DNA of 20,899 nucleotides from an uncultured Clostridia bacterium (GTDB taxonomy: Bacteria; Bacillota_A; Clostridia; Oscillospirales; Oscillospiraceae), in assembly GCA_947307375.1 (NCBI GenBank), contig CAMZIX010000010.1, forward strand, positions 1 to 20,899, read 5' to 3'. Each line of letters begins with the position of its first letter. Within the stretch, counting starts at the first letter, position 1. Below the pieces are notes generated by a model. The model saw only the letters and a list, made by a program, of their open reading frames with translations. It searched no databases and was not told the origin of the DNA. Positions 2,241 through 20,277 of this stretch are shown piece after piece. The translations under genes were made by a program, and so were the position numbers.

Positions 2241-3836
2241 CTATCTTGCGATTCTCTTTTTCGTTACAAAAACGATGTATTTCATCAGAATATTGACAAG
2301 AAGAATAACCAAAGAAACAAAGGCCGCACACTCCAACTGCATCTGTCCTTCAAACTGGGTGATCATTAAAGCGATCGGCTTATTGCTTACTTTGCTCAAG
2401 AAGGAGACCGCAGAGATTGTCATCATGCAGTTGACGAAAAAATAGCTCATCATTTCCAAGATCGTCCCCATCGACTGGGGAAGAAGGACGTCCAGGATGA
2501 CCTTCCATCTGCTGATTCCCAGGGTCGAGCCCACATCTTCAAGGTTTTCGTTGATTTTCCCGAAGGTGTTATATGCCATCAGATAGGGCGAAGAGAAGAA
2601 ATGCATGGAGTTTACCAGAAAAATGATGGCAAAGGTTCCGTAAATCGGGGTCGACTTAAAAAACATTACATAAGACAGACCGAGAACAAGGCCGGGGATC
2701 GCAAGGGATGTGATCGACATCAGATGAAGCAAATAACTAAGCTTTGTCTTCAGTCTTGCGGTCATGTACGCGTTCACGACTGCCAAAGCCGTCCCGAGGA
2801 AGGAGACAACAACAGCGATGACCAGGGAGTTGCGCAGGTATTTCAGGGCGCCCATATTGACAGCCTGATAGGTGTTCTTTAGGGACAAGGTCATATCAAT
2901 AGGATATTTGTTTACAAAGCCCAGAATAGCAAAGGAGCCGATCGGCAGAAAAACGCCAATGATTATAAGCAGACAGATCAATCTGGCAAATCGGTCTCGC
3001 GCGACATTCTTTTTGATCCCATAAGGTTTCCCGACAAACGAAGCGTTTCCCTTGTCTCTGTTTGCCATGTCCAAAATACAGGCGATCAGCGCGGGCGCAA
3101 GGAGGATCATGCCGATGACAGAGCCCTTTCCGAAATCCAGCATGCCAATAACATCCTGATACATCATGACGGGCAGCGTCATGTATTTTCCGCCGACCAT
3201 GAGGGGAACGCCATAGTCGGTGATAATCATTGTAAATGTGGCAAACACAACCGAAATAAGAGGTTTCCGAAGATACGGAAGCGTGATTGCCAGGAATTTG
3301 TTCTTTGCTGAAAGACCCATTACATCCGCTGCTTCGTACGGCGTGCCGTCCTCATAGCGGAGGACGTCGTAAAGCATCAAATAAGCAACGGGGAACGAAT
3401 ACATGACTGACCCGATAACGATCCCCCAGAAGCCATAGATTCCGGCTTCAAGCCCAATGATTCTGGACAGCCAGCCTTTGGCTCCGAGGATAATAATCAG
3501 ACCCATGCCGTGCGAAATGGACGGGATCAGCATCGGAACCGTGAGGAGCGTATTCAGGATCGTCTTATGCTTGATGTTCGTTCTGGCAACCGCCCAGGAA
3601 AGCAGTCCGGCAAGGCAAACCGAAATCAAAGTGGCTGTAAAGCTAACGGTGAGAGACTGTCGCAAAGCTCTGGAGAATTTCGGCGCGCTGATTACGGCCA
3701 AAACATCTACGGAAGCCATAGTGGAGAGCATCCGAAGCAGCGGCAGAATAATTGCAACCAGCCAAAATACGCACAAAAGGATCTTCAAGGCGCTCGATGG
3801 TGTCCATGTATTCTTTTTCACATGGTTTCCCGTCAT
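2241..3836 (-). CDS. Fused double ABC permease, 2-aminoethylphosphonate/ferric-type importer family
   Basis: Inner-membrane channel of an ABC importer, 531 aa. Two homologous permease domains are fused in one chain, with about 12 hydrophobic segments. Each half carries an EAA-type coupling loop that docks on the ATPase: around residues 168-190 (EAADVMGLS, then ITLP) and 431-453 (NLEDVGSTLGISRWKV, then LLP). This fused layout is typical of the PhnU/PhnV-like and FbpB-like permeases. The start overlaps the ATPase stop as ATGA, with GGAGG seven bases upstream, so the two are translationally coupled. It is the last gene before the operon terminator. The importer class is clear. The substrate cannot be read from the permease; 2-aminoethylphosphonate or another small phosphorylated amine is inferred from the neighbouring cytidylyltransferases. 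Confidence 0.85.
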   Translation of the reverse strand: MTGNHVKKNTWTPSSALKILLCVFWLVAIILPLLRMLSTMASVDVLAVISAPKFSRALRQSLTVSFTATLISVCLAGLLSWAVARTNIKHKTILNTLLTVPMLIPSISHGMGLIIILGAKGWLSRIIGLEAGIYGFWGIVIGSVMYSFPVAYLMLYDVLRYEDGTPYEAADVMGLSAKNKFLAITLPYLRKPLISVVFATFTMIITDYGVPLMVGGKYMTLPVMMYQDVIGMLDFGKGSVIGMILLAPALIACILDMANRDKGNASFVGKPYGIKKNVARDRFARLICLLIIIGVFLPIGSFAILGFVNKYPIDMTLSLKNTYQAVNMGALKYLRNSLVIAVVVSFLGTALAVVNAYMTARLKTKLSYLLHLMSITSLAIPGLVLGLSYVMFFKSTPIYGTFAIIFLVNSMHFFSSPYLMAYNTFGKINENLEDVGSTLGISRWKVILDVLLPQSMGTILEMMSYFFVNCMMTISAVSFLSKVSNKPIALMITQFEGQMQLECAAFVSLVILLVNILMKYIVFVTKKRIAR

Positions 3837-4636
3837 GTCAAATCCTCCGCAGCGCCTTGAACTTCAGAAGAGCGGGCAAACTGAATCAGGCTGTCGATCT
3901 TCGTATTGATATTCTTGATCACAAAACGTCTCACATAATCATCCGCCGGATGATCGATAATATTGTGCGGCGTATCCAGCTGGTGGATCACGCCTGCGTC
4001 CATAACCATAATCCTGTCAGACATGGCGAAGGCCTCTTCCTGGTCATGGGTGATGTAGATCATCGTCGTGCCAAACTTTTTCTGAAGCTCTTTCAGTTCG
4101 GAACGAAGGCTGAGCCTCGTGTCGACGTCCAGCGCAGACATGGGTTCGTCAAACAGAATAACATCCGGATTCAAAGCAAGCGTTCTTGCAATCGCCACAC
4201 GCTGCTGCTGCCCGCCGGAAAGCTGACGCGGCTTCTTGTCAAGATGGGCCTCCAGGCCGACCAGTTGAAGCATCTCCGTCGCCTTTTTGGCAGCCTCCGC
4301 TTTATTATACTGTCCTTTTATCGACGCGCTGTTCAAAAGCGCATAGGTCACGTTTTTGAGGACGGACATATTTTCAAACAGAGCGTAGTTCTGGAATACG
4401 ATACCCATATGTCTTTGCGAAGAAGGAAGGTTTGTGATTTCCTTTCCGTCTTTGAAGATCGTACCGCTTTCGGCAGTCTCCAACCCGATCAGGATGCGCA
4501 GGATCGTTGTCTTTCCGCACCCGGAGGGACCAAGAATGGACAAAAATTCCCCATCGTTAACGGAAAAGCTGACATCATGCAGTACGCCAGCGTGTCCGAA
4601 TGCTTTTGACAAATGCTCCACTTTAATTTTTTCCAT
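3833..4636 (-). CDS. ABC importer ATPase
   Basis: Cytoplasmic ATPase that powers the adjacent importer, 267 aa. All catalytic motifs are present: Walker A GPSGCGKT (36-43), Q-loop VFQNY (Gln82), signature LSGGQQQR (139-146), Walker B VILFDEP (159-165) and the switch histidine in THD (His197). At 267 residues it is shorter than the ~350-residue spermidine/iron-type ATPases and lacks most of the C-terminal OB-like regulatory region, so it may lack that form of substrate inhibition. An AGGGG sequence lies seven bases before the ATG. Its stop overlaps the permease start by four bases, and it follows the lipoprotein gene after a 72-base gap holding a hairpin. It resembles the PhnT/PotA/FbpC group; the cargo is inferred from context only. 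Confidence 0.9.
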   Translation of the reverse strand: MEKIKVEHLSKAFGHAGVLHDVSFSVNDGEFLSILGPSGCGKTTILRILIGLETAESGTIFKDGKEITNLPSSQRHMGIVFQNYALFENMSVLKNVTYALLNSASIKGQYNKAEAAKKATEMLQLVGLEAHLDKKPRQLSGGQQQRVAIARTLALNPDVILFDEPMSALDVDTRLSLRSELKELQKKFGTTMIYITHDQEEAFAMSDRIMVMDAGVIHQLDTPHNIIDHPADDYVRRFVIKNINTKIDSLIQFARSSEVQGAAEDLT

Positions 4637-4662
4637 ATCTTTGCCCCTTGTAATTTTTAAAA

Positions 4663-4687
4663 GGGAGGAAGGACTTACCTTCCCCCC
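4663..4687 (-). terminator. Intra-operon hairpin, possible partial terminator or mRNA stabiliser
   Basis: On the minus strand a ten-base-pair stem with one G-U pair (4687-4678 with 4672-4663), loop TAAGT, is followed by TTTT. It lies between the binding-protein stop and the ATPase start. Such elements often raise binding-protein expression over the membrane components. Confidence 0.6.
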
Positions 4688-4708
4688 ATGATTGTGTCTT
4701 GTAAAAAC

Positions 4709-5746
4709 TTAGTACTGCCAGTTGTCCAGCAGACGGGTTTTTTCCTCAGTAGTATTGCCATGCATATCCGCATAGTTGATACCCGTAGGATAGTTCTCGA
4801 TATTGTTCACCTGGTTAACAAACACCTGCTCCGGGTAGTAGAGCTCTTTGTCTTCCATAACAAGCGTGGTATAGAAGAAGTTGAACACGTCAACAACGGC
4901 TTTGCGATTCTGCTTTCCTTCGGGGATGGCATATCCGTACAGGGAGTAGGGAGAACCCTCTTCGAAGAACAGGATTTTCAGATTTGCGCCATTGTTGATT
5001 GCGGTGACCGCCTGGGCAGTCATGCCGAGGCCAACGGCAACCTCGCCCTGAACCAGCGCATTCACAGGGCCGGAACCGGATTCGGTGAACTGAAGGATGT
5101 TCTCGGCAAGGGCATCAAAGTACTCAAATGCCTTCTCCTCGCCCCATGCATTTACCAGGCTCTTTACGAACATGTATCCCGTGCCGGAAGACTTGGGGCT
5201 GGGCATGGAAACCAGGTTTTTAAACTCAGGCTTAAGAAGATCCGCATAGCAGGTCGGCTCAGCGATGCCCTTTTCAGCGAGGACATCAGGATTCACAATG
5301 ATCGCGCCGCCGTTACGGGTTGCGGCCAGATAATGCGCATTCTCAACCTTGCAGTCATCCACATAGATGGACTGGTCGTAGGAAGAAACATCGGCAAGAT
5401 ACTGTTCCACGAGACCGGCATAGCTGAAGTCCAAATCGTAGAAAATATCCATATCCGTGTCGGTGCCTTCCGCGGCGAGCTTTGCCGCGAGGTTACCGGT
5501 CGGCATATACTCGATGGTCACATCATAGTCCGGGAACTCTTCCTTGATCCGTTTGAGGAAGTATTCGTTGCGGTACTCTTCTGCGCCGGAGTATATAACG
5601 ACCTTATTGCTGCTTTCGTCAAGAGCGGCGACGGCTTCCGGTTCGGACGTGGGCTGCGTTTCGCTGGCAGGCGCGGTACCACAAGCCGAGAGCACGATCG
5701 ACATCATAAGGACAAATGCGATAATCATGTAAAGCTTTTTCGTCAT
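4709..5746 (-). CDS. Substrate-binding lipoprotein of the ABC importer
   Basis: Extracytoplasmic solute-binding protein, 345 aa, anchored by a lipid. The N-terminus has KK, a hydrophobic stretch and lipobox LSAC with Cys22, then a Ser/Thr/Pro/Glu-rich linker to about residue 45. The mature domain begins with KVVIYSG, typical of the ferric/2-aminoethylphosphonate cluster of binding proteins. It holds SSGTGY (186-191) and TESGSGP (221-227), small-residue loops of the kind that can hold a phosphate or phosphonate group. In ferric-binding FbpA proteins a Tyr-Tyr pair binds iron near the second of these positions. I do not see one there, which weighs against iron. GGAGG lies nine bases before the ATG. 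The gene has its own strong promoter and heads the importer genes. 2-Aminoethylphosphonate is my leading guess, with phosphocholine or a related phosphoamine as alternatives. Confidence 0.8.
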   Translation of the reverse strand: MTKKLYMIIAFVLMMSIVLSACGTAPASETQPTSEPEAVAALDESSNKVVIYSGAEEYRNEYFLKRIKEEFPDYDVTIEYMPTGNLAAKLAAEGTDTDMDIFYDLDFSYAGLVEQYLADVSSYDQSIYVDDCKVENAHYLAATRNGGAIIVNPDVLAEKGIAEPTCYADLLKPEFKNLVSMPSPKSSGTGYMFVKSLVNAWGEEKAFEYFDALAENILQFTESGSGPVNALVQGEVAVGLGMTAQAVTAINNGANLKILFFEEGSPYSLYGYAIPEGKQNRKAVVDVFNFFYTTLVMEDKELYYPEQVFVNQVNNIENYPTGINYADMHGNTTEEKTRLLDNWQY

Positions 5747-5798
5747 TTACTATTTCCTCCAAAAAATTATACGTCCCTGTTTGTTCGTGGACGAGAGA

Positions 5799-5827
5799 AT
5801 AATACCTCGGTTTTGAACATTTGTCAA
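5799..5827 (-). promoter_or_regulatory. Strong sigma-A-type promoter of the importer operon
   Basis: On the minus strand: TTGACA (5827-5822), a 17-base spacer, TATTAT (5804-5799). The -35 is perfect and the -10 matches five of six. The predicted start gives a leader of about 45 bases to the lipoprotein ATG. The spacer contains the 9-mer AATGTTCAA, also found at the promoter of the upstream cytidylyltransferase gene. Confidence 0.85.
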
Positions 5828-5839
5828 TATGATTTGAAC
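5812..5839. promoter_or_regulatory. Direct repeat around the importer -35, possible operator
   Basis: TTTGAAC occurs at 5812-5818 and 5833-5839 on the plus strand. The copies are 21 bases apart, about two helical turns, so they sit on the same face of the DNA on either side of the -35 box. The binding factor is unknown; the wHTH-cytidylyltransferases next door are candidates. Confidence 0.4.
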
Positions 5840-5906
5840 GAAAAAATCACCAATATTGTTCTTTTTTACGCCGCTGATTCTGTTGAAATGAACTATCAAG
5901 GCGTTT

Positions 5907-6800
5907 TCAAACGTCATAAGTCTTATCCAATTGCTTCAGTTCCCTAAAGGTGTCGATTTCGGTAACATCCTCATCCGTGCAAGGACGGATCTCGACGCGA
6001 TAATGGTCTTTGCAGTAGTGCAGCGGGACCTGCTCCCAATAGCGTTCCTTTCCGCCCGGCGCCTGATAGGTTTCCAGCAGATCGTTTGCCAGTTTATGTC
6101 CGTCATCCTCAGACCAATAGGAGATACCCAGCAGACGCCAGATATTGTCTCCTTCTCCGCCAACCTTCTCTTCAACAATCACGCCATCCTTGACGACAAC
6201 GCACCAGTCATCTGTTCTTTGCATCTTGATGCCGAGAATATTGGAATTGTACTGATACCGCTTGATGAGCTCAGGATTCGCGATCAGCAGATCGGCCTCG
6301 AACACATAGGCATTGGATAGCATATACCTGGCGACCATCGCCGAGGAAATATTATTCGACTCGTTATAGATCGGGTTCTCCATGAATTTGATCATGGGGT
6401 ACTTATACAGAAGCTGGTCAAACTGATCCGGCAGGTAGCCGCGCACAATATAGATCTCCGTTATCCCGGCATCCAGGCAAGCGTCCAGCAGTCCCTCGAT
6501 GATACGTTTTCCCTTAACCCGCACAAGGGGTTTTGGCGTGTTGAGGGAAATGGGAAGAAGCCGCGCACTGAAGCCTGCAGCAAGAAAAACAGCCCGTTTA
6601 ACGCGGTACGGCTCCAAAGCCTGGATCCCAGCAGGAGTGATTTTACCCTTATTGATATAGCCGGCTTCCGTCAGTTCTTTTACAAGCCGGTTGACATTGC
6701 CCAGTGACTGATTCGTGATATCGCAAAGCTGCCTTTGTGTAAGGCTTCCCTTGATCGAATAGCTTTCCAGTATTTCAAATTGCTTTTTGCTCAGTTCCAC
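5907..6800 (-). CDS. LicC-type cytidylyltransferase with N-terminal winged-helix domain (copy 1)
   Basis: Predicted nucleotidyltransferase, 297 aa. Residues 1-60 form a MarR-like winged helix, with a recognition helix near SLGNVNRLVKEL and a short wing ending ITPAG. From about residue 67 it matches LicC (CTP:phosphocholine cytidylyltransferase) and PntC (2-aminoethylphosphonate cytidylyltransferase): LAAGFSARL (73-81), NTPKPL (87-92), the acidic EAD motif (about 159) and TEIDTFREL near the C-terminus. The first motif usually reads AAGxGxR; here the second glycine is serine. No choline-kinase domain follows, unlike some Clostridial fusion proteins. I chose the GTG at 6800, with GGAGG eight bases upstream; TTG and ATG codons further upstream lack a binding site, and the ATG overlaps this GGAGG. 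The gene has its own promoter and lies just before the importer. Enzyme class is well supported; substrate and DNA binding are inferred. Confidence 0.85.
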   Translation of the reverse strand: MELSKKQFEILESYSIKGSLTQRQLCDITNQSLGNVNRLVKELTEAGYINKGKITPAGIQALEPYRVKRAVFLAAGFSARLLPISLNTPKPLVRVKGKRIIEGLLDACLDAGITEIYIVRGYLPDQFDQLLYKYPMIKFMENPIYNESNNISSAMVARYMLSNAYVFEADLLIANPELIKRYQYNSNILGIKMQRTDDWCVVVKDGVIVEEKVGGEGDNIWRLLGISYWSEDDGHKLANDLLETYQAPGGKERYWEQVPLHYCKDHYRVEIRPCTDEDVTEIDTFRELKQLDKTYDV

Positions 6801-6851
6801 AGATGTTACCTCCATGTTCTGTTTTGGCTGCGTGCACACCAAACATTGAAC

Positions 6852-6880
6852 ATTATGGACGATACAGGCGGTTTTGTCAA
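6852..6880 (-). promoter_or_regulatory. Sigma-A-type promoter of cytidylyltransferase copy 1
   Basis: On the minus strand: TTGACA (6880-6875), a 17-base spacer, CATAAT (6857-6852). The predicted leader to the GTG start is about 45 bases. The 9-mer AATGTTCAA overlaps the -10 (6854-6846). A related inverted half-site, AATGTTCAG, lies upstream at 6907-6915 on the plus strand. Confidence 0.78.
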
Positions 6881-6965
6881 TGAGTTTAATCCTGTTTGGA
6901 GAGAAAAATGTTCAGAATATCAGAAACCATGCCGTCCGATGAACTGCCGCGGGAAGGATGGGCAG

Positions 6966-7853
6966 TCATACGTCATAGCTCTTGTCGATTTTCCTCAGTT
7001 CCTTAAAGGTGTCAATCTCGATAATATCGCCTTCCTTGCATTCTCGAACTTCGATTTTATAGTTATCATGAAACACGGTCGTTGGGATCTGCGTCCAGAA
7101 CCATTCTTTACCGCCCGGCATCTCAAACGCTTCCTTCAGATCGGTAGCCAGCTTCTTTCCGGATTCTGCATCCCAATAGGATATACCGTATTCCTGATAG
7201 CAATCGATCCCGCCGACCTTGTGCGTGGCGATATATCCGTCCTTCAGGGTAAAACACCAGTCATCAGAACGCTCTTTGTAGAAGCCGAGGAAGTTGGAGC
7301 AGTACTGATATTTCTTGATCAGTTCCGGCTTTTGGAGAAGCAAGTCCGACTCGAAAAGATAGGCATTGGAGAAGAGATACCTGGCGCAAAGAGCGGAGCT
7401 GATGTTGTTTGTCTCATTATAAGCAGGATTTTCGATAAACTTGATCATCGGGTATTTATAAAGAAGTTGATCAAATTGCTCCGCCAGATAGCCGCGTACG
7501 ATGTAGATTTCTTCGATCCCGGCGGCGAGACAGGCGTCGATCAAGCCGTCAATAATCCTCTTTCCGTGCACGCGAACCAGCGGCTTCGGGGTATTGAGCG
7601 TTACCGGAACAAGGCGGGTACCGAATCCGGCGGCGATAAACACAGCCCGTTTTGCACGATAGGGTTCGAGGGCTTCTTTCCCTGCCTCGGTAATCCGATT
7701 GTCCTTTAAGTATCCGCTTTGTTCAAGAGACTCAATTTCTAGAAGGATAGACGCCAACGAGTTCTTTGATGATCCGGATATCTCATCGGGCGACTTCAAG
7801 AACCCGGACGAATCCACCGAAGTCAGAATATCAAACTCCATTCGAGATAGCAT
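6966..7853 (-). CDS. LicC-type cytidylyltransferase with N-terminal winged-helix-like domain (copy 2)
   Basis: Predicted nucleotidyltransferase, 295 aa, a close paralogue of copy 1. The two are nearly collinear over the catalytic domain, with identical runs such as EQ/DQFDQLLYKYPMIKF and ELIKxYQY. Motifs are IAAGFGTRL (73-81), LNTPKPL (86-92), ESD (158-160), SDDWCF and IEIDTFKEL near the end. Unlike copy 1, the glycine-rich loop is canonical. The N-terminal ~60 residues keep the winged-helix length and the closing ITEAG, but the middle is much diverged, so DNA binding is less certain. No kinase domain is present. I chose the ATG at 7853, ten bases after AGGAGG; upstream in-frame starts lack a binding site. 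There is no clear promoter of its own, so it may be read through from the flippase gene. It may activate the same phosphoamine as copy 1 or a related one. Confidence 0.85.
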   Translation of the reverse strand: MLSRMEFDILTSVDSSGFLKSPDEISGSSKNSLASILLEIESLEQSGYLKDNRITEAGKEALEPYRAKRAVFIAAGFGTRLVPVTLNTPKPLVRVHGKRIIDGLIDACLAAGIEEIYIVRGYLAEQFDQLLYKYPMIKFIENPAYNETNNISSALCARYLFSNAYLFESDLLLQKPELIKKYQYCSNFLGFYKERSDDWCFTLKDGYIATHKVGGIDCYQEYGISYWDAESGKKLATDLKEAFEMPGGKEWFWTQIPTTVFHDNYKIEVRECKEGDIIEIDTFKELRKIDKSYDV

Positions 7854-7889
7854 TGGGCAATAGCCTCCTTGTTTTTTGTGAGCATGATC

Positions 7890-7907
7890 GCCGCTGTTTT
7901 CAGCGGC
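7890..7907. other. Small hairpin ahead of cytidylyltransferase copy 2
   Basis: GCCGCTG and CAGCGGC form a seven-base-pair stem around TTTT. It sits about 30 bases before the ribosome binding site of the gene at 6966-7853. No T-run follows on the minus strand, so it is an mRNA leader structure rather than a terminator. Confidence 0.35.
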
Positions 7908-7969
7908 CACGCAAAAACCCCGATTGTCGGTTGGGAAAAAGATGATATCGGCGCTTTTCTCCGATCGTT

Positions 7970-11032: not shown

Positions 11033-11851
11033 TTATTTGTTAAACTGAACTTCCCAAACATCCAGATGCGTTGTTTCTTTCGGCCCGTCAGGAACCACCA
11101 TATAATCTTTCCCATACAGGTTGCTCAGATACCGGTCGTAACCGGAGGGAACGGGAAATCTGGAGTCATTGAAATCCATATACACAGGGTCTGACATGTA
11201 TTCTTTTTCTATCGTCTCGCGTTCCCCATAATGGGCTGGCAAACTGCACGCTACCAATCGGGAGGTATTATAGTCATGAGCTCTGGCCAGGGAATTCATT
11301 AATGACGCGAAGAAATGAACGCCAAAGAGCCTGGCGATTCGCCCGACGATCTTCCTCAAAACAATAAATCTGTGCTCCGGCAGATACATCCGTCTTGTCG
11401 CCTCAGAGCACACAGTATCAAGCACCTTCAAGGTCCAATAGAAGACTTTCCTTTTCCAGGCCGCATCCGATACCCCGTCAATGGGAAAAACATCCACGCT
11501 TACCCCAATGTCAGGAGAATAGACTGTTTTATGAATCACCCGGGTGTTGGGGTCCCACACCCGCGCGTAGGATAAATTGCAATTCTTGTCGTTATCCAGC
11601 GTGCAAATGCGAAACCGGCTTGTGGTCTTTGCTTCAAATAGCCGGATGAATTTTTCATAATCATCCCGGGGCATCATGACGTCTCCGTCGTCATCCCAGG
11701 GGATAAAGCCATGGTGGCGCACTGCCCCGAGGCAGGTCCCTCCGGAAAGAAAGTATTTGATGTCATTCTCCCGGCAGAAGGAATCAATTTCACACAGAAT
11801 CTCATACACGATCGATTGCATTTTTGCAACCGTTTCATCCTTGACATACAT
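11033..11851 (-). CDS. LicD-family phosphotransferase (copy A)
   Basis: Predicted LicD/fukutin-family enzyme, 272 aa. These transfer phosphocholine, or polyol phosphates in relatives such as FKRP, from a CDP donor to a sugar. The core signature is intact: GGTCLGAVRH (37-46), GFIPWDDDGDVMMPRDDYEKF starting at 48, and SVDVFPIDG in the middle, supplying the acidic metal-binding residues. I chose the ATG at 11851, just after the stop of the upstream LicD gene and behind AAGGA at 11 bases; an upstream start would overlap that gene by over 60 bases. Copies A and B share an insertion-free layout and the segment NLYGxDYM near the C-terminus, so they look like a tandem duplication. The transferred group may be CMP-activated phosphoamine or a polyol phosphate. 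Family is secure; donor is unknown. Confidence 0.88.
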   Translation of the reverse strand: MYVKDETVAKMQSIVYEILCEIDSFCRENDIKYFLSGGTCLGAVRHHGFIPWDDDGDVMMPRDDYEKFIRLFEAKTTSRFRICTLDNDKNCNLSYARVWDPNTRVIHKTVYSPDIGVSVDVFPIDGVSDAAWKRKVFYWTLKVLDTVCSEATRRMYLPEHRFIVLRKIVGRIARLFGVHFFASLMNSLARAHDYNTSRLVACSLPAHYGERETIEKEYMSDPVYMDFNDSRFPVPSGYDRYLSNLYGKDYMVVPDGPKETTHLDVWEVQFNK

Positions 11852-11858
11852 ATCGCAA

Positions 11859-12692
11859 TCATTCCTTGTTAAAAACGAGTTCCCAGTCATCAATCTGCAT
11901 GTAACAGTGCTCGACTGCATTCTCGGGGATCTTCATATAATCTCCATACAGGTTCGTCAGGTAGCTCTTGTAATCCGCAGGGACAGACATTTCCACCCCA
12001 TTAAACGGGAGCAGGGTCGAATTCTCAAAAATCGACCTGTCCATGATCTCTCGCTTCCCATACCCGGGATCGATGCCTACTCCGGCGTATTTCGATGTGT
12101 TATAGGGGTATTTCAAAGCCAGCTTATCCATCATTAGGGAAAAAAACCGCCATCCGAGAGGCTTTAAAAATACACGCAAAAGCTTTTTCAGGAGGATCAG
12201 ATGCTCTTGCGCATGATAATTCACCTTTTCCGAGTTGAAGGCCAAGAATTCTAACAGGCGCATACGTTTTAAGAAAAACACCCTTGCCAGGCCGCTTTCC
12301 GGAAAGCCGTCGATCGGAAAGAGATCGACACATGCGCCGACTTCTATATCCTGCAGGTTTTTATGCTTTAAAACCGTGTTTCCATCCCACACTCGGCCGA
12401 ATTGCCGCTTCCATTTCGGATCGATCTGCAAAGCTGCAATCTCATATTTTCGGTTTGGATCATTTTTGTATTCGCGGAGGAACCGCTCGTAATCCGGCCG
12501 GGGGAACATGATGTCGGCATCGTAATCCCAAGGAATAAAACCCTGGTGTCTGGCTGCGCCGAGACAGGTTCCGGCGCATAAAAAATACCGGATACCCTTC
12601 TCCTTGCAGAATCTGTCAATCTCGCACATGATGGGAAAAATGCATTCCTGAATGCGCTCGATCGCCTTTTTTTGATTGGAATAGTCCTTCAT
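11859..12692 (-). CDS. LicD-family phosphotransferase (copy B)
   Basis: Predicted LicD-family enzyme, 277 aa. It carries AGTCLGAARH (40-49), then PWDYDAD (54-60) and MFPRPDYERF, and ACVDLFPIDG in the middle. The usual run of three aspartates after the tryptophan is D-Y-D here, so one acidic position is lost. Related enzymes tolerate other residues at that site, so it is probably still active. GGAG lies seven bases before the ATG. The stop is seven bases before the start of copy A, so the two are cotranscribed and probably coupled. It follows the SDR gene by 45 bases. It may use the CDP-polyol made by the IspD-like and SDR pair or the product of the LicC-like enzymes. The family is secure; substrate is open. 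Confidence 0.88.
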   Translation of the reverse strand: MKDYSNQKKAIERIQECIFPIMCEIDRFCKEKGIRYFLCAGTCLGAARHQGFIPWDYDADIMFPRPDYERFLREYKNDPNRKYEIAALQIDPKWKRQFGRVWDGNTVLKHKNLQDIEVGACVDLFPIDGFPESGLARVFFLKRMRLLEFLAFNSEKVNYHAQEHLILLKKLLRVFLKPLGWRFFSLMMDKLALKYPYNTSKYAGVGIDPGYGKREIMDRSIFENSTLLPFNGVEMSVPADYKSYLTNLYGDYMKIPENAVEHCYMQIDDWELVFNKE

Positions 12693-12737: not shown

Positions 12738-13808
12738 TCATCTCTGTGCGCTTCGGTCTAACTCTTTCAATATTTCGACGGTGTGTGAAAAACCGCCTTG
12801 GGCATCAAACAGTCCTTTCCAGCCAAGAGAAAGAAGTTCTGTGCTATCGAGCGACGAATTGCTCATCGGATTGAACCCTTTTTTCTCTGTCTCCGTAGGA
12901 AGCTCCATTTTCAGTTCTACACCTGCGGTTCTGACAAGGATCTCGGCCATTTGCCGAATGTTGATGATAGAATCGGGGTTTGAAATATTATAGGCGTGAA
13001 TGGGCTGGCCTTTCAGGAGCACCTTCAGAATTGCCGATGCACAGTCAAGGCAGTAGCAATAGCTCCTGATCTGCGATCCATCGCTCTTCATGACGATGTC
13101 TTCTCCGCGGGCCACAGCATAAACCCACGCAGATGAGACCCTGTTATCCGACTGCACTGCCGTTGGACCATAGATGTGCCCCGGCCGGACAATCACGGAC
13201 TCCACTCCGTATTCGTCATAATAGGAAGCGCACATGGTTTCCGCTGCGCACTTTCCGATAGAGTACGAGTTCCTGGGATTCAGAAGATCAATCCAACCAT
13301 ATTCGTCTGCTTTGCTCGGCCCATCGTGTTCCTTCCTGCCGTAAACCTCGGAGGAAGAAATATAGAGAACCCGCTTGGTTCCCATTTCCTTTGCATAATC
13401 CAACAGATTCTTCATCCCGAGGAAATTGCTCAGCATGGTCTCAACAGGTTCTTTGACGATCTTATTCGGAGAAGCATTGCTCGCTCCGTGAATAATATAA
13501 TCGCAAGGAAGGTTCAGTGCGTTTCCTGCTGCGGACGCGTCATAGGGCACAAACGTAAACCACTCTCTGCCGGAATAGGGGGCGAAGCGACTATCGGCCT
13601 TTTTTTCACTCCGTCCGGCGGCCAGAAGCTTTATCTTTGCCTCGTGCGTCTCATTCCATCGGATGAGGATATCCGCTACAGCTGAGCAGATGAGCCCTGT
13701 GCAGCCGGTAATCAGCACACGTCTGCCCGCTAACTCGTCCAGCTCCGGCAAGGCGGCTATTTCCTCATCCAGATCTGAAATCCACAGTTTGCTGTCGTAA
13801 ATACTCAT
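12738..13808 (-). CDS. NAD-dependent epimerase/dehydratase family (extended SDR)
   Basis: Rossmann-fold nucleotide-sugar enzyme, 356 aa. The cofactor loop TGCTGLIC (34-41) has cysteine where the third glycine of TGxxGxxG normally sits. Catalytic elements are present: ISSSEVYG (150-157) and YSIGK with Tyr182 and Lys186, followed by RPGHIYGP. The SDR starts four bases after the IspD-like stop, with AAGGA nine bases before its ATG, so the two genes are coupled. In some pneumococcal capsule loci, as I recall, an IspD-like enzyme and an epimerase-like enzyme make a CDP-pentitol together; that pairing would explain this one. Reduction of a CDP-ketose or epimerisation of an NDP-sugar are the two main readings. 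The fold is certain; the reaction is not. Confidence 0.85.
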   Translation of the reverse strand: MSIYDSKLWISDLDEEIAALPELDELAGRRVLITGCTGLICSAVADILIRWNETHEAKIKLLAAGRSEKKADSRFAPYSGREWFTFVPYDASAAGNALNLPCDYIIHGASNASPNKIVKEPVETMLSNFLGMKNLLDYAKEMGTKRVLYISSSEVYGRKEHDGPSKADEYGWIDLLNPRNSYSIGKCAAETMCASYYDEYGVESVIVRPGHIYGPTAVQSDNRVSSAWVYAVARGEDIVMKSDGSQIRSYCYCLDCASAILKVLLKGQPIHAYNISNPDSIINIRQMAEILVRTAGVELKMELPTETEKKGFNPMSNSSLDSTELLSLGWKGLFDAQGGFSHTVEILKELDRSAQR

Positions 13809-13812
13809 AAAC

Positions 13813-14529
13813 CTAATCCTTCAGCCAGTCAGAGCGTTTGGCCGCCAGCAAAGCCTTAAAGATGTCGATATCCTCTACCGTTGTCAGTTTGATGTTTTTC
13901 TCGGAGCCGATGGAGAAGTACACCTGCTCGCCCATTTCAATTTTCAGTGTGCAGGACGCTACGGAATTTGTAATCCCGGCTTCCAGCGCACGTCTATGCA
14001 GATTACAAATATCACCGAGATAGAAGGCCTGCGGCGTCTGCGTCCGTTTAAGCCGGTCGCGAGGATAAGACCCCGTGGACACTATGCCGTCCTCCGTCTG
14101 CATCATGGCTTCGGCACACGGGATAACCGTTATAGCGTTCCCGTACTTGCGAGCAACGCGGATGTTGTCTGAAATAATTTCCGCGCTGACCATCGGCCGG
14201 ATAGCATCGTGAATCAAGACGATGTCATCCTTTTCAAAATGCTTTTCGAGCTCGAAAACACCATTGCGGATGGAATCCTGCCCATTCTTTCCGCCGGGAA
14301 CGATATACTGCAGCTTTTTGATACTAAACTGCTTTGCGTATGCCCAAAGCACCTGCTCCCAACCACTGATGCACACGACCGCGATCGCATCGATCTCCGG
14401 ATGCTTTTCAAACGCCTCAAGAGTATAAACGATTACCGGCCGCTCATTCACGGTGATAAACTGCTTCGGGATATCCTGGTGCATACGGTTTCCTGAGCCG
14501 CCCGCGATTAATAGCGCAATATTAGCCAT
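13813..14529 (-). CDS. IspD/TarI-like cytidylyltransferase
   Basis: CTP-dependent cytidylyltransferase, 238 aa, the normal length for IspD and TarI. Motifs in order are AGGSGNRM (9-16), PKQF (21-24), GGKNGQDSIRNG (79-90), HDAIRP (107-112) and RTQTPQAF (162-169), with TTVEDIDIF near the end. It activates a sugar- or polyol-phosphate, or methylerythritol phosphate, as a CDP derivative. Setting it between a LicD gene and an SDR gene in a surface-polymer cluster argues for a dedicated CDP-polyol enzyme rather than the isoprenoid housekeeping IspD, which would be expected elsewhere. GAGGAG lies nine bases before the ATG. It is four bases upstream of the SDR gene and 27 bases after the LicD gene. 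The class is firm; the substrate, for example ribitol-, ribulose- or xylulose-5-phosphate, is inferred. Confidence 0.87.
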   Translation of the reverse strand: MANIALLIAGGSGNRMHQDIPKQFITVNERPVIVYTLEAFEKHPEIDAIAVVCISGWEQVLWAYAKQFSIKKLQYIVPGGKNGQDSIRNGVFELEKHFEKDDIVLIHDAIRPMVSAEIISDNIRVARKYGNAITVIPCAEAMMQTEDGIVSTGSYPRDRLKRTQTPQAFYLGDICNLHRRALEAGITNSVASCTLKIEMGEQVYFSIGSEKNIKLTTVEDIDIFKALLAAKRSDWLKD

Positions 14530-14556
14530 TTCTCTTCGCTCCTCATTTTTCTGTTA

Positions 14557-15300
14557 TCAATGCTCCGTTCGAACAGGTGTCATATAATCCCCGTACTGTT
14601 CCTTCAAATAATTATCCCAGTTTTTTATTGCCATGAGTTCTGTGTTCTCAAAAAGAAGGATCGAGTAATCATCCATAAGCGCCGGGTCATATTCACAATC
14701 CAGGCTCTGGAAAATATCATTGCAGATCATAAGCGGCTGATTCGTATTTGTATTTCCCCAGGCAGAGAGAGAAGTGTACATTTTCTGTTTCCGCTCTTTT
14801 GAGAACAGCCTTCCCATTATCCGGGTTACCATGAGGGCAACTCGATATGCGAATGAAAAATCCTTCTTCTCATTCGTCTTGGTTTTCATCATTCCCTGAA
14901 GGAATTTCAGCCCAATGACTTTTAGCTTCTTCCTGAATTTCCCGGAAGGAACTCTGTCAACAATAAAGATGTCTAAGACCGGCGTGTCATCTTCGATTCC
15001 GTGCTGATTATAAACATCTTTCTCTACAATTTTATAAACCCACAACGGCGCCGTCAAAACATACCGCTCCATTTTCGGGAATGCTTGTCTCAACAAATCA
15101 AAGTTTTTCCTGTCCATGAGAATGTCTACATCATCATCCCACGGAATAAACCCCTTTTCCCTGACGGCTCCCAATAAAGTCCCACCTATCATGGAATAGG
15201 CGATACCGTTTTTCATGCAGAAAGCATGAAAATCTTTCATCATCGACAATAATATCCGCTGCTTTGAGGCAACATTATATTGATCATTGATATCTATCAT
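14557..15300 (-). CDS. LicD-family phosphotransferase (copy C)
   Basis: Predicted LicD-family enzyme, 247 aa, shorter and more divergent than copies A and B. It has the full canonical core GGTLLGAVREKGFIPWDDDVD (39-59), then DILMDR, and PVLDIFIVDRV in the middle instead of the VDVFPIDG of the other two. The C-terminus has YLKEQYGDYMTP, the family's usual ending. It sits directly upstream of the IspD-like and SDR genes with a 27-base gap, so it is the best candidate user of their CDP-polyol. AAAGG lies about 11 bases before the ATG, a weak site. It starts 24 bases after the FemAB-like gene. Phosphopolyol transfer is my preferred reading, phosphocholine or phosphonate transfer the alternative. 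Confidence 0.88.
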   Translation of the reverse strand: MIDINDQYNVASKQRILLSMMKDFHAFCMKNGIAYSMIGGTLLGAVREKGFIPWDDDVDILMDRKNFDLLRQAFPKMERYVLTAPLWVYKIVEKDVYNQHGIEDDTPVLDIFIVDRVPSGKFRKKLKVIGLKFLQGMMKTKTNEKKDFSFAYRVALMVTRIMGRLFSKERKQKMYTSLSAWGNTNTNQPLMICNDIFQSLDCEYDPALMDDYSILLFENTELMAIKNWDNYLKEQYGDYMTPVRTEH

Positions 15301-18091: not shown

Positions 18092-19402
18092 CTAATTGAA
18101 GCACCGGCGGATGATCTCAATGATCACGTCCTGCTGGGCCGGGGTCATTTTGTTGTCGCTCGGCAGGCAGAGGCCGCGCCGGAAGACGTCCGCGCCGACG
18201 TCGACGCCGGTGCCGCTGATATAGGCGTTGGTCCTCCCGCGCCCGTTGCCCTCGATCGTCACAAAGTCGTTGGCCCGGTAGATCGGCTGCAGGTGCATCG
18301 GCTTCCAGATCGGACGGCCCTCCGCGTTGAAGGCGGCGAGCGCATCGAGGATCTCGTGCGGCGAGCTCTTGCCGCTCTCGTGCTGGTACATATAATCCTT
18401 CTCGCCCCGGACCATGGGCGCCATCGCGTCCTCGTCGATCAGCAGGCAGCTCAGCCAGAAGTTGGGGACGGACTTTTCCGCGTCGTAGGGATTCATCCAG
18501 ACCGGCAGATCCTTCAGGCCCTCGCGGTAGCGCTCATAGATGGCGCGCTTCTGGGCGATGTGCTCGGACAGGTAGGGGATCTGGCCGCGGACGACGCCGG
18601 CGATGATGTTGCTCATGCGGTAGTTGTAGCCGATCTCCTCGTGCTGATACCAGGGGGCGGCTTCCCGGGCCTGCGTGCTCCATTTGCGCACCTTGTCGGC
18701 GTCCTCCTTGGAGTCGGTCAGGAACATGCCGCCGGACGAGCCGGTGATGATCTTGTTGCCGTTGAAGGAAATGCAGTTATAGTTGCCGAGCGTGCCGGTC
18801 TCGACCCACTGACCGTTCAGCAGGTACTTGGCGCCCAGAGATTCCGCAGCGTCCTCCACGATCAGCGCGCCGTGCTTTTCGCAGATGGCCTTGATCTGCT
18901 CCATCTTGCCGGGGGTGCCGTACAGATGGGCGACGACCACAAGACGGACCTCCGGATACAACTCAAAGGCTTTTTCCAGGGCCTCCGGGCTCATGTTCCA
19001 GGTGTCGTACTCCGTGTCGATGAAGACGGCCTCTCCGTCCTCATAGGCGACGGGGTTGACGGAGGCGTCAAAGGTCATGTCCGAGCAGAAGGCCTTGTGC
19101 CCGGCCAGGGTGCCGCGATCGGGCCGCGCCTGACCGTAGAGCGTCTCGCCGGCCAGCTTGGTCGCCAGATGAAGGGCGGCCGTTCCGGCGGACAGGGCGA
19201 CGGCGTATTTTACGCCGATGAATTCGGCCATCTGGCGCTCGACTTCGTTGATATTTTCCCCGAGCGTGGAGACCCAGTTGGTCAGAATGGCATCGTCCAC
19301 CCAGTGCTGCTCATCTCCGTGCATGGTGGGGCTGCTCAGCCAGATCTTGCTGCCGAACGGTTCAATGCCGGCAAATCTCGGATCGTTCAAATAATCGTAC
19401 AT
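18092..19402 (-). CDS. DegT/DnrJ/EryC1/StrS aminotransferase (PglE/EpsN-like)
   Basis: PLP-dependent nucleotide-sugar aminotransferase, 436 aa. SAGTAALHLA (71-80) contacts the phosphate of PLP, VEDAAESLGA (182-191) supplies the aspartate that binds the pyridine nitrogen, and SFNGNKIIT (212-220) carries the catalytic Lys217. These proteins convert a 4-keto-6-deoxy sugar nucleotide to its 4-amino form, using the product of a CapD/PglF-type dehydratase such as the gene at the left edge. GAGGG lies six bases before the ATG. The gene heads the minus-strand operon behind a strong promoter and a leader of about 115 bases. Its codons are GC-rich, unlike the genes that follow, so the cassette boundary falls just after it. 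The family is secure. The sugar is inferred as UDP-4-amino-4,6-dideoxy-GlcNAc from the pathway fit. Confidence 0.92.
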   Translation of the reverse strand: MYDYLNDPRFAGIEPFGSKIWLSSPTMHGDEQHWVDDAILTNWVSTLGENINEVERQMAEFIGVKYAVALSAGTAALHLATKLAGETLYGQARPDRGTLAGHKAFCSDMTFDASVNPVAYEDGEAVFIDTEYDTWNMSPEALEKAFELYPEVRLVVVAHLYGTPGKMEQIKAICEKHGALIVEDAAESLGAKYLLNGQWVETGTLGNYNCISFNGNKIITGSSGGMFLTDSKEDADKVRKWSTQAREAAPWYQHEEIGYNYRMSNIIAGVVRGQIPYLSEHIAQKRAIYERYREGLKDLPVWMNPYDAEKSVPNFWLSCLLIDEDAMAPMVRGEKDYMYQHESGKSSPHEILDALAAFNAEGRPIWKPMHLQPIYRANDFVTIEGNGRGRTNAYISGTGVDVGADVFRRGLCLPSDNKMTPAQQDVIIEIIRRCFN

Positions 19403-19695: not shown

Positions 19696-20277
19696 ATGAG
19701 GATCTGCGTTTTTGCGGCCTCCAGCAATCATCTGGAGGAACGGTATCCGGCGGCGGCGGAGGAACTGGGCCGTCTGCTCGGACAGGGCGGCCACACGCTG
19801 GTTTTCGGCGGCGGCCGGACCGGGCTGATGGGCGCCTGCGCACGCGGAGCGGCTGAGACCGGCGCGGAGATCATCGGCGTTGCGCCGCGCTTTTTCGACG
19901 AGCCCGGCGTGCTGTACGAGCGCTGCAGCCGCTTCGAATGGACGGACAGCATGGCCGAGCGCAAGACCCGGATGGAAGAGGAGGCGGAGGCCTTCCTGAT
20001 CCTCCCGGGCGGCATCGGCACGATGGAGGAGTTCTTCGAGGTGCTGACGCAGAAGCAGCTCGGCCTGCACGCCAAGCCCATGGCGCTGCTGAACACCGCC
20101 GGCTATTTTGACAGCCTGGCCGCCTTTCTGCGCCGCATGACGGACATGGGCTTCGCCGGGCGGGATGTCCCGGGGCTCGTATCGCTCTGCGATACGCCGG
20201 AGGAGGCGCTGCGTGCGCTGACCGAGGCGCCGCCCGCGGAGACGCGGCGCCGATCCAAAGCGGAATATTTCCGATGA
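19696..20277 (+). CDS. LOG-family protein (TIGR00730; nucleotide phosphoribohydrolase-like)
   Basis: Rossmann-fold enzyme, 193 aa, of the lysine-decarboxylase-like/LOG family. Characterised members cleave nucleoside 5'-monophosphates, including cytokinin nucleotides, to base and ribose 5-phosphate. The nucleotide-binding part VFGGGRTGLMG (36-46) and the hallmark PGGIGTMEE (104-112), which carries the catalytic glutamate, are both intact. An arginine in AERKTRM (about 89) matches the other conserved site. AAGGAG lies six bases before the ATG. It has its own promoter and its own terminator, so it is a single-gene unit independent of the polymer cluster. The cytokinin-type role is not implied in this organism; a nucleotide-recycling role is more likely. 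Confidence 0.9.
   Translation: MRICVFAASSNHLEERYPAAAEELGRLLGQGGHTLVFGGGRTGLMGACARGAAETGAEIIGVAPRFFDEPGVLYERCSRFEWTDSMAERKTRMEEEAEAFLILPGGIGTMEEFFEVLTQKQLGLHAKPMALLNTAGYFDSLAAFLRRMTDMGFAGRDVPGLVSLCDTPEEALRALTEAPPAETRRRSKAEYFR

What the first reader, a model, noticed from the sequence alone, without database searches (positions are those of the whole stretch)
2241..7853. Kinase-less lic-like module: ABC importer plus two LicC-type cytidylyltransferases
Seen: an ABC importer of the 2-aminoethylphosphonate/ferric type lies directly after two LicC/PntC-like enzymes, with three LicD genes upstream on the same strand. No LicA-type kinase, no LicB-type transporter and no PEP mutase is in the window. 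Known: LicC activates phosphocholine and PntC activates 2-aminoethylphosphonate as CMP derivatives; LicD transfers the headgroup. Inference: the cell imports a ready-made phosphonate or phosphorylated amine, activates it directly with CTP and puts it on its surface polymer. Surface phosphonylation by salvage rather than by biosynthesis would be a new variant.
Basis: partly seen in the sequence, partly recalled or inferred. Interest (0 to 1): 0.85.

Follow-up and report, generated by a model that had tools for sequence, protein, structure and literature searches.

The report
Importer-fed phosphonate activation for surface glycans
A gut bacterium seems to import a ready-made phosphonate (most likely 2-aminoethylphosphonate), activate it with CTP and attach it to its surface polymer, in place of making the phosphonate itself; related gut bacteria swap this importer for the genes that make the compound.

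Summary
Window 2241-7910 (minus strand), in a capsule operon, encodes two tandem LicC/PntC-like cytidylyltransferases and a three-gene ABC importer; LicA, PepM and AEP transaminase were sought in the window and not found. In 80 genome loci with the same enzyme family the neighbour is an ABC importer (33), an amino-acid-type permease (19), AEP-making genes (22, three also with the permease) or none of these (6). Importer and AEP transaminase nearly exclude each other (1 of 80 genomes has both), but the phylogeny-controlled test is underpowered. In the 33 importer genomes no phosphonatase or C-P lyase passes its cut-off; 11 have PepM, 3 choline kinase. The binding protein keeps most of the phosphate pocket of organophosphate binders and loses their sugar residues. 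Both enzymes have PntC's Glu at LicC Asp105. Best reading: AEP salvage for surface decoration. Weak points: no assay; window genome not held; the only two other tandem-pair loci carry pepM next door; LicD in only 14 of 33 importer genomes.

The parts
6966..7910 (-). LicC1: LicC/PntC-like cytidylyltransferase; N-terminal region aligns with the winged helix of relatives but has no Pfam hit (314 aa; ATG at 7853 gives 295 aa)
   Evidence: PF00483/PF12804; 1jyk E 5e-26; Glu187 at LicC D105 position, Thr273 at D192 position
5907..6842 (-). LicC2: winged-helix (HTH_24) + LicC/PntC-like cytidylyltransferase (311 aa)
   Evidence: PF13412, PF00483; Glu at both PntC-type positions; Ser for Gly in the nucleotide loop; in a starred 29-row clade with 10 AEP-linked enzymes
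4709..5746 (-). Substrate-binding lipoprotein (LSAC lipobox read by eye)
   Evidence: SBP_bac_6; best NCBIfam PhnS2 below cut-off; AfuA/P5PA closest solved relatives
3833..4636 (-). ABC ATPase
   Evidence: PF00005; PhnT2 best, below cut-off
2241..3836 (-). Fused ABC permease
   Evidence: PF00528; PhnU2 best, below cut-off
11033..11920 (-). LicD a, candidate phosphotransferase
   Evidence: PF04991 2e-42
11859..12692 (-). LicD b, candidate phosphotransferase
   Evidence: PF04991 2e-40
14557..15300 (-). LicD c, candidate phosphotransferase
   Evidence: PF04991 4e-30
13813..14529 (-). IspD/TarI-like third cytidylyltransferase
   Evidence: PF01128 1e-37; below NCBIfam cut-offs
12738..13808 (-). NAD-dependent epimerase/dehydratase next to the IspD-like gene
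   Evidence: PF01370
7970..9424 (-). Wzx-like flippase of the host operon
   Evidence: PF01943
9565..10923 (-). Wzy/O-antigen ligase-like polymerase of the host operon
   Evidence: PF04932

Best explanation
The cassette is a salvage branch of the phosphonyl-tailoring (Pnt) pathway. The lipoprotein and ABC importer take up a ready-made phosphonate, most likely 2-aminoethylphosphonate (AEP); at least one of the two LicC/PntC-like enzymes (LicC2 is the better candidate) joins it to CMP using CTP; a phosphotransferase, here probably one of the three LicD proteins, moves it to the capsule repeat unit. No kinase and no AEP biosynthesis are needed. Shown here: gene content, adjacency, exchange with AEP biosynthesis genes among relatives, lack of detectable AEP breakdown genes in nearly all importer genomes, a largely retained phosphate pocket, PntC-type residues. 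Inferred: the ligand, the enzyme reaction, the transferase, and that the window's own genome behaves like its relatives.
For: Neighbours among 80 loci: importer 33, permease 19, AEP synthesis 22 (3 with the permease too), none 6. AEPT (TIGR03301) over cut-off in 1 of 33 importer genomes, 0 of 19 permease genomes and 2 of 6 others; importer SBP in 0 of 22 AEP-making genomes; Fisher p 7.5e-8 over 80 genomes (phylogeny ignored). Contexts interleave on the enzyme tree (importer label at least 8 changes forced by starred branches, AEP label at least 5). Over cut-off: phosphonatase 0 of 33, PhnJ 0 of 33. SBP: AfuA phosphate residues S37-G38, S148-G149-T150 and G185 correspond to T83-G84, S187-G188-T189 and G224; sugar residues Y103, H205, D206, E229 correspond to T143, A244, Q245, S268 (my reading of the alignment with residue roles). 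The LicC D105 position is Glu in 82 of 82 stand-alone family members of the 80 loci and in both window copies; the D192 position is Glu in 21 of 22 AEP-linked copies and in LicC2, as Glu104/Glu196 in Tde-PntC (PMC6697681 section 8).
Against: PepM is over cut-off in 11 of 33 importer genomes, and the only other loci with the tandem enzymes (L001, L010) carry PepM directly after the permease. LicC1 has Thr at the D192 position; LicC2 has Ser for Gly in the nucleotide loop. 26 of 35 importer-linked copies have LicC-type Asp at D192, and 4 of 6 choline-linked rows have Glu there, so that position discriminates poorly. AfuA Thr60, also a phosphate contact, has no counterpart in the aligned window SBP, and T83-G84 vary among the 33 aligned SBPs. 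All importer genes fall below the curated AEP-family cut-offs. The phylogeny-controlled test has only 4 independent pairs, median p 0.5. One importer genome (L053) has both importer and AEP transaminase. LicD in only 14 of 33. Most genomes are MAGs, so single absences mean little.
Confidence: 0.62

Rival explanations
1. The importer takes up a phosphate ester of a small amine (phosphocholine or phosphoethanolamine), which a true LicC activates directly.
For: Best solved relative is pneumococcal LicC, ahead of PntC; the aromatic positions W136, Y190 and W191 of LicC are kept or conservatively changed in nearly all stand-alone rows, but the AEP-preferring Ari-PntC has the equivalent aromatic residues too (PMC6697681).
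Against: Choline kinase over cut-off in 8 of 80 genomes; of the four loci opened at such hits, three hold winged-helix-LicC-LicA fusions and one a separate LicC beside the kinase gene, so the choline route has its own LicC. Glu instead of Asp at D105 in 82 of 82 stand-alone members. The same enzyme family sits beside AEP synthesis in 22 of 80 loci.
Confidence: 0.15
2. The importer brings in AEP or another organophosphate as nutrient and is only a neighbour of the surface genes.
For: Known AEP importers serve catabolism (recalled; PMC8316502 seen only in a reference list).
Against: No phosphonatase and no C-P lyase over cut-off in the 33 importer genomes, AEPT in 1 of 33 (nine weak sub-cut-off hits to the phosphonatase model and one to the AEPT model exist); the importer lies beside the activating enzyme in 33 of 80 loci, and only 5 of the other 47 genomes hold the SBP, one of them partial and three distant.
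Confidence: 0.1
3. The phosphonate is made in the cell and the importer carries something else, such as a second phosphonate or a precursor; the two LicC copies serve two different headgroups.
For: PepM in 11 of 33 importer genomes; L001, L010 and L050 have PepM and Ppd in one cluster beside the importer, without AEPT in the genome. The tandem pair occurs in the window, L001 and L010 only, among window and 80 loci.
Against: 22 of 33 importer genomes show no PepM, among them L015's, whose importer genes are 76-81% identical to the window's.
Confidence: 0.13

Closest known systems
Phosphonyl-tailoring (Pnt) pathway with PntC (Rice et al. 2019, PMC6697681; abstract and results sections 6-8 read)
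   Same: CTP activation of a phosphonate by a LicC-related cytidylyltransferase, next to LicD or glycan genes; the two Glu residues of Tde-PntC are present in LicC2, one of them in LicC1.
   Different: Pnt clusters make AEP with PepM; here an importer takes that place. The words transporter, salvage, uptake and ABC do not occur in that paper's main text.
lic operon (LicA-LicB-LicC-LicD)
   Same: Import, CTP activation and LicD transfer logic; LicC relative.
   Different: No kinase and no LicB found; multicomponent ABC importer; Glu instead of Asp105.
2-aminoethylphosphonate ABC importers (PhnS2/T2/U2; PhnSTUV)
   Different: All below curated cut-offs; catabolic genes nearly absent in relatives.
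AfuABC and P5PA importers for organophosphates (PMC4546632, PMC8427247; passages read)
   Different: Sugar-ring residues replaced; linked to a cytidylyltransferase.
AEP on C. difficile flagellin type A glycan (PMC8861647, discussion read)
   Same: AEP on a surface glycan in a Clostridia species reported to lack pepM; uptake suggested there.
   Different: Genes for uptake and activation not identified there; C-P lyase genes reported in that species.

Membership tests
LicC (CTP:phosphocholine cytidylyltransferase) | NTP-transferase domain with acidic residues D107, E216, D218 | tested here: met
   Conserved in both copies; PF00483
LicC (CTP:phosphocholine cytidylyltransferase) | Asp105 and Asp192 in the substrate pocket | tested here: not met
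   Glu/Thr in LicC1, Glu/Glu in LicC2
LicC (CTP:phosphocholine cytidylyltransferase) | LicA choline kinase in the same cluster | tested here: not met
   No hit in the window; genome not held
PntC (CTP:AEP cytidylyltransferase) | Glu at both LicC D105 and D192 positions (Tde-PntC E104, E196) | tested here: inconclusive
   Met in LicC2, half met in LicC1; Tde-PntC aligned here only up to residue 112, E196 taken from the paper
PntC (CTP:AEP cytidylyltransferase) | Linkage to PepM/AEPT | tested here: inconclusive
   Not found in window; AEPT beside the family member in 22 of 80 loci
PntC (CTP:AEP cytidylyltransferase) | Preference for AEP over phosphocholine | not testable with these tools
   needs enzyme assay
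PhnS2/PhnT2/PhnU2 AEP importer (TIGR03261/65/62) | Scores above curated cut-offs | tested here: not met
   161/393, 322/458, 378/593 bits
Organophosphate-binding SBP of AfuA/P5PA type | Phosphate-binding residues | tested here: inconclusive
   T83-G84, S187-G188-T189, G224 aligned to AfuA S37-G38, S148-G149-T150, G185; Thr60 has no counterpart
Organophosphate-binding SBP of AfuA/P5PA type | Ring-binding residues Y103, H205, D206, E229 (AfuA) | tested here: not met
   T143, A244, Q245, S268
Ferric-binding FbpA type | Paired iron-ligand tyrosines (recalled) | not tested
LicD phosphotransferase | PF04991 over gathering score | tested here: met
   106-146 bits against 22.6
LicD phosphotransferase | Transfers phosphocholine or AEP | not testable with these tools
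   Only the sequence was tested: NCBIfam Mf1 equivalog cut-off not reached

The most novel reading that the evidence does not exclude
Gut Clostridia decorate their surface with phosphonate taken from neighbours (ciliates or other bacteria): a CTP-activating enzyme module is repeatedly re-plugged between an importer and the AEP-making genes, so that surface phosphonylation becomes a cross-fed trait without pepM; in the window's lineage a duplicated activating enzyme handles two different imported or made phosphonates.
Probability: 0.45. Interest if true: 0.85.

Novelty: new variant of a known kind. Interest (0 to 1): 0.68.

Why it matters
Genome surveys of phosphonate producers look for pepM (for example the survey cited in PMC8861647 that scored C. 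difficile negative). If import can replace biosynthesis, pepM-negative gut Clostridia may carry C-P bonds on their surface. It would also give candidate genes for an open question in print: where C. difficile gets the AEP found on its flagellin. It makes AEP a possible exchanged good in the rumen and gut, where AEP was first isolated from protozoa (Horiguchi and Kandatsu 1959, seen only as a citation).
Full report
1. What is there. The window holds a capsule-type operon on the minus strand running from a DegT aminotransferase (18092-19402) to a Wzz-like gene (466-1944; no Pfam hit, named from position and look only). Near its end lie, in transcription order, LicC1 (6966-7910), LicC2 (5907-6842), a lipoprotein (4709-5746), an ABC ATPase (3833-4636) and a fused permease (2241-3836), with gaps of 123, 160, 72 and -4 bp. 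tblastn with AEP transaminase, PepM, decarboxylase, three LicA domains and an APC permease against the window gives no credible hit (best E of these 0.37; a DUF6564 query gave 0.039), while the transaminase, PepM, decarboxylase, LicA and DUF6564 queries find their targets in control loci (the permease had no control there). No whole genome is held for the window.

2. Relatives of the enzymes. By tblastn annotation, the enzyme is next to an ABC importer like the window's in 33 loci (SBP 39-80% identical), next to an APC-type permease in 19, next to AEP synthesis genes in 22 (three of them also with the permease), and next to none of these in 6. In L011 the neighbours pass the curated cut-offs of AEP transaminase (TIGR03301, 449/361 bits), PEP mutase (TIGR02320, 423/320) and phosphonopyruvate decarboxylase (TIGR03297, 462/313). 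So one enzyme family has three kinds of neighbour that could supply a substrate.

3. Exchange of supply genes. In the 33 importer genomes the AEP transaminase is over cut-off in 1 (the L053 genome), phosphonatase in 0 and C-P lyase PhnJ in 0. The PhnJ search rings over cut-off in its E. coli control; the transaminase and phosphonatase searches ring over cut-off in none of their 14 controls. Below cut-off there are nine phosphonatase-model hits and one transaminase-model hit. In the 22 AEP-making genomes the importer's binding protein is found in 0; in the 6 'none' genomes in 2, one of them partial. In the 19 permease genomes the transaminase is over cut-off in 0 and a distant binding protein is found in 3; 2 of the 6 'none' genomes have the transaminase. 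Fisher's exact test on 80 genomes gives p 7.5e-8, or 1.2e-6 when the four partial or distant SBP hits are counted as absent. These genomes are related: on the enzyme tree only 4 independent pairs on well-supported branches differ in the transaminase, and the sign test cannot be significant (median p 0.5), though the direction is opposite in 1.8 and the same in 0.1 pairs on average. The tree interleaves the contexts (importer label 17 changes, at least 8 forced by starred branches; AEP label 8, at least 5), and LicC2 falls in a starred clade of 29 rows with 10 AEP-linked, 9 importer-linked and 5 permease-linked enzymes.

4. PepM and choline kinase. PepM is over cut-off in 11 of 33 importer genomes and 2 of 17 permease genomes; of the remaining 30 genomes, 24 are over cut-off, among them one of the two permease genomes left for that list. 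Domain scans of the L001 and L050 clusters show metallophosphoesterase, epimerase-like, DUF6564 and saccharopine-dehydrogenase-like genes between PepM and decarboxylase; for L010 only PepM, DUF6564 and decarboxylase were identified, by tblastn. None of these three genomes has an AEP transaminase hit, so that cluster should make a different phosphonate, and the importer could still bring in AEP. Choline kinase is over cut-off in 8 of 80 genomes (6 of 50, 2 of 30), 3 of them importer genomes. Of four loci opened at such hits, L082-L084 hold winged-helix-LicC-LicA fusions and L081 a LicC gene beside the kinase gene: the choline pathway, where opened, has its own LicC. Of the 33 importer genomes, 20 show neither PepM nor choline kinase. 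Most are MAGs, so absences are statistical.

5. Residues. Reading the LicC alignment (chain numbers minus 20 give the published numbers), the position of LicC Asp105 is Glu in 82 of 82 stand-alone family members of the 80 loci and in both window copies, against Asp 2, Ser 2, Pro 2 in the six choline-linked rows. Tde-PntC has Glu104 there and Glu196 at the position of LicC Asp192 (PMC6697681, section 8). At the second position 21 of 22 AEP-linked copies have Glu; importer-linked copies have Asp 26, Glu 8, Thr 1; LicC2 has Glu, LicC1 Thr; but choline-linked rows have Glu in 4 of 6, so this position alone does not discriminate. D107, E216 and D218 are kept in both window copies. LicC2 has Ser for the second Gly of the nucleotide loop, as do the second copies of L001 and L010 and no other of the 82 rows. 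Ari-PntC, with 440-fold preference for AEP, also keeps LicC's aromatic residues, so overall LicC-likeness does not argue for choline.

7. Transferase. LicD is over cut-off in 14 of 33 importer genomes. In 16 of 80 loci, 12 of them importer loci, a YidC-like/CDP-glycerol glycerophosphotransferase-like fusion lies upstream of the enzyme (domains scanned in L002 only) and may do the job. The window has three LicD and three cytidylyltransferases (LicC1, LicC2 and an IspD-like enzyme with an epimerase), so which LicD serves which headgroup is open. In L001 much of the upstream operon is conserved (DegT 71%, IspD-like 86%, epimerase 78%, two LicD 50-53% identical).

8. Literature. Rice et al. describe PntC with PepM-made AEP, and the words transporter, salvage, uptake and ABC do not occur in the main text. 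PMC8861647 reports AEP on C. difficile flagellin, states that pepM was not found there and leaves uptake open. Among the searches I saw no paper on an importer-PntC cassette; the library holds open-licence papers only.

9. Verdict. I rate it a new variant of a known kind.

Noticed in passing
L086:1136-7372; L089:10177-16422; L088:960-7261: PepM - metallophosphoesterase - epimerase-like - DUF6564 - saccharopine-dehydrogenase-like - phosphonopyruvate decarboxylase cluster beside the importer (domains scanned in L086 and L089; in L088 only PepM, DUF6564 and decarboxylase identified), with no AEP transaminase hit in those three genomes: candidate for an undescribed phosphonate.
   Followed up: partly
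L082:1334-3105 (-), L083:568-2331, L084:565-2325: Winged-helix-LicC-LicA fusion proteins of about 590 aa in genomes that also hold the stand-alone winged-helix LicC.
   Followed up: partly
L002:11080-12630, L022:8449-9945, L061:2616-4067 and 16 further loci by tblastn: APC-type amino-acid permease next to the same enzyme, in L025, L064 and L076 together with AEP synthesis genes: possible single-gene importer of the same substrate.
   Followed up: partly
L002:7346-9415 and relatives upstream of the enzyme in 15 further loci: Fusion of a YidC-like insertase domain with a CDP-glycerol glycerophosphotransferase-like domain, possibly the transferase where LicD is missing.
   Followed up: no
window 5907-6842: LicC2 has Ser in place of the second Gly of the nucleotide-binding loop, shared only with L001's and L010's second copies among the 82 rows compared.
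   Followed up: no
window 12738-15300: IspD-like cytidylyltransferase with an epimerase-like enzyme between LicD genes: a second CDP-activated headgroup likely; 86% and 78% identical in L001.
   Followed up: no
window 19696-20277 (+): Stand-alone lysine-decarboxylase-like (PF03641) gene next to the operon start.
   Followed up: no
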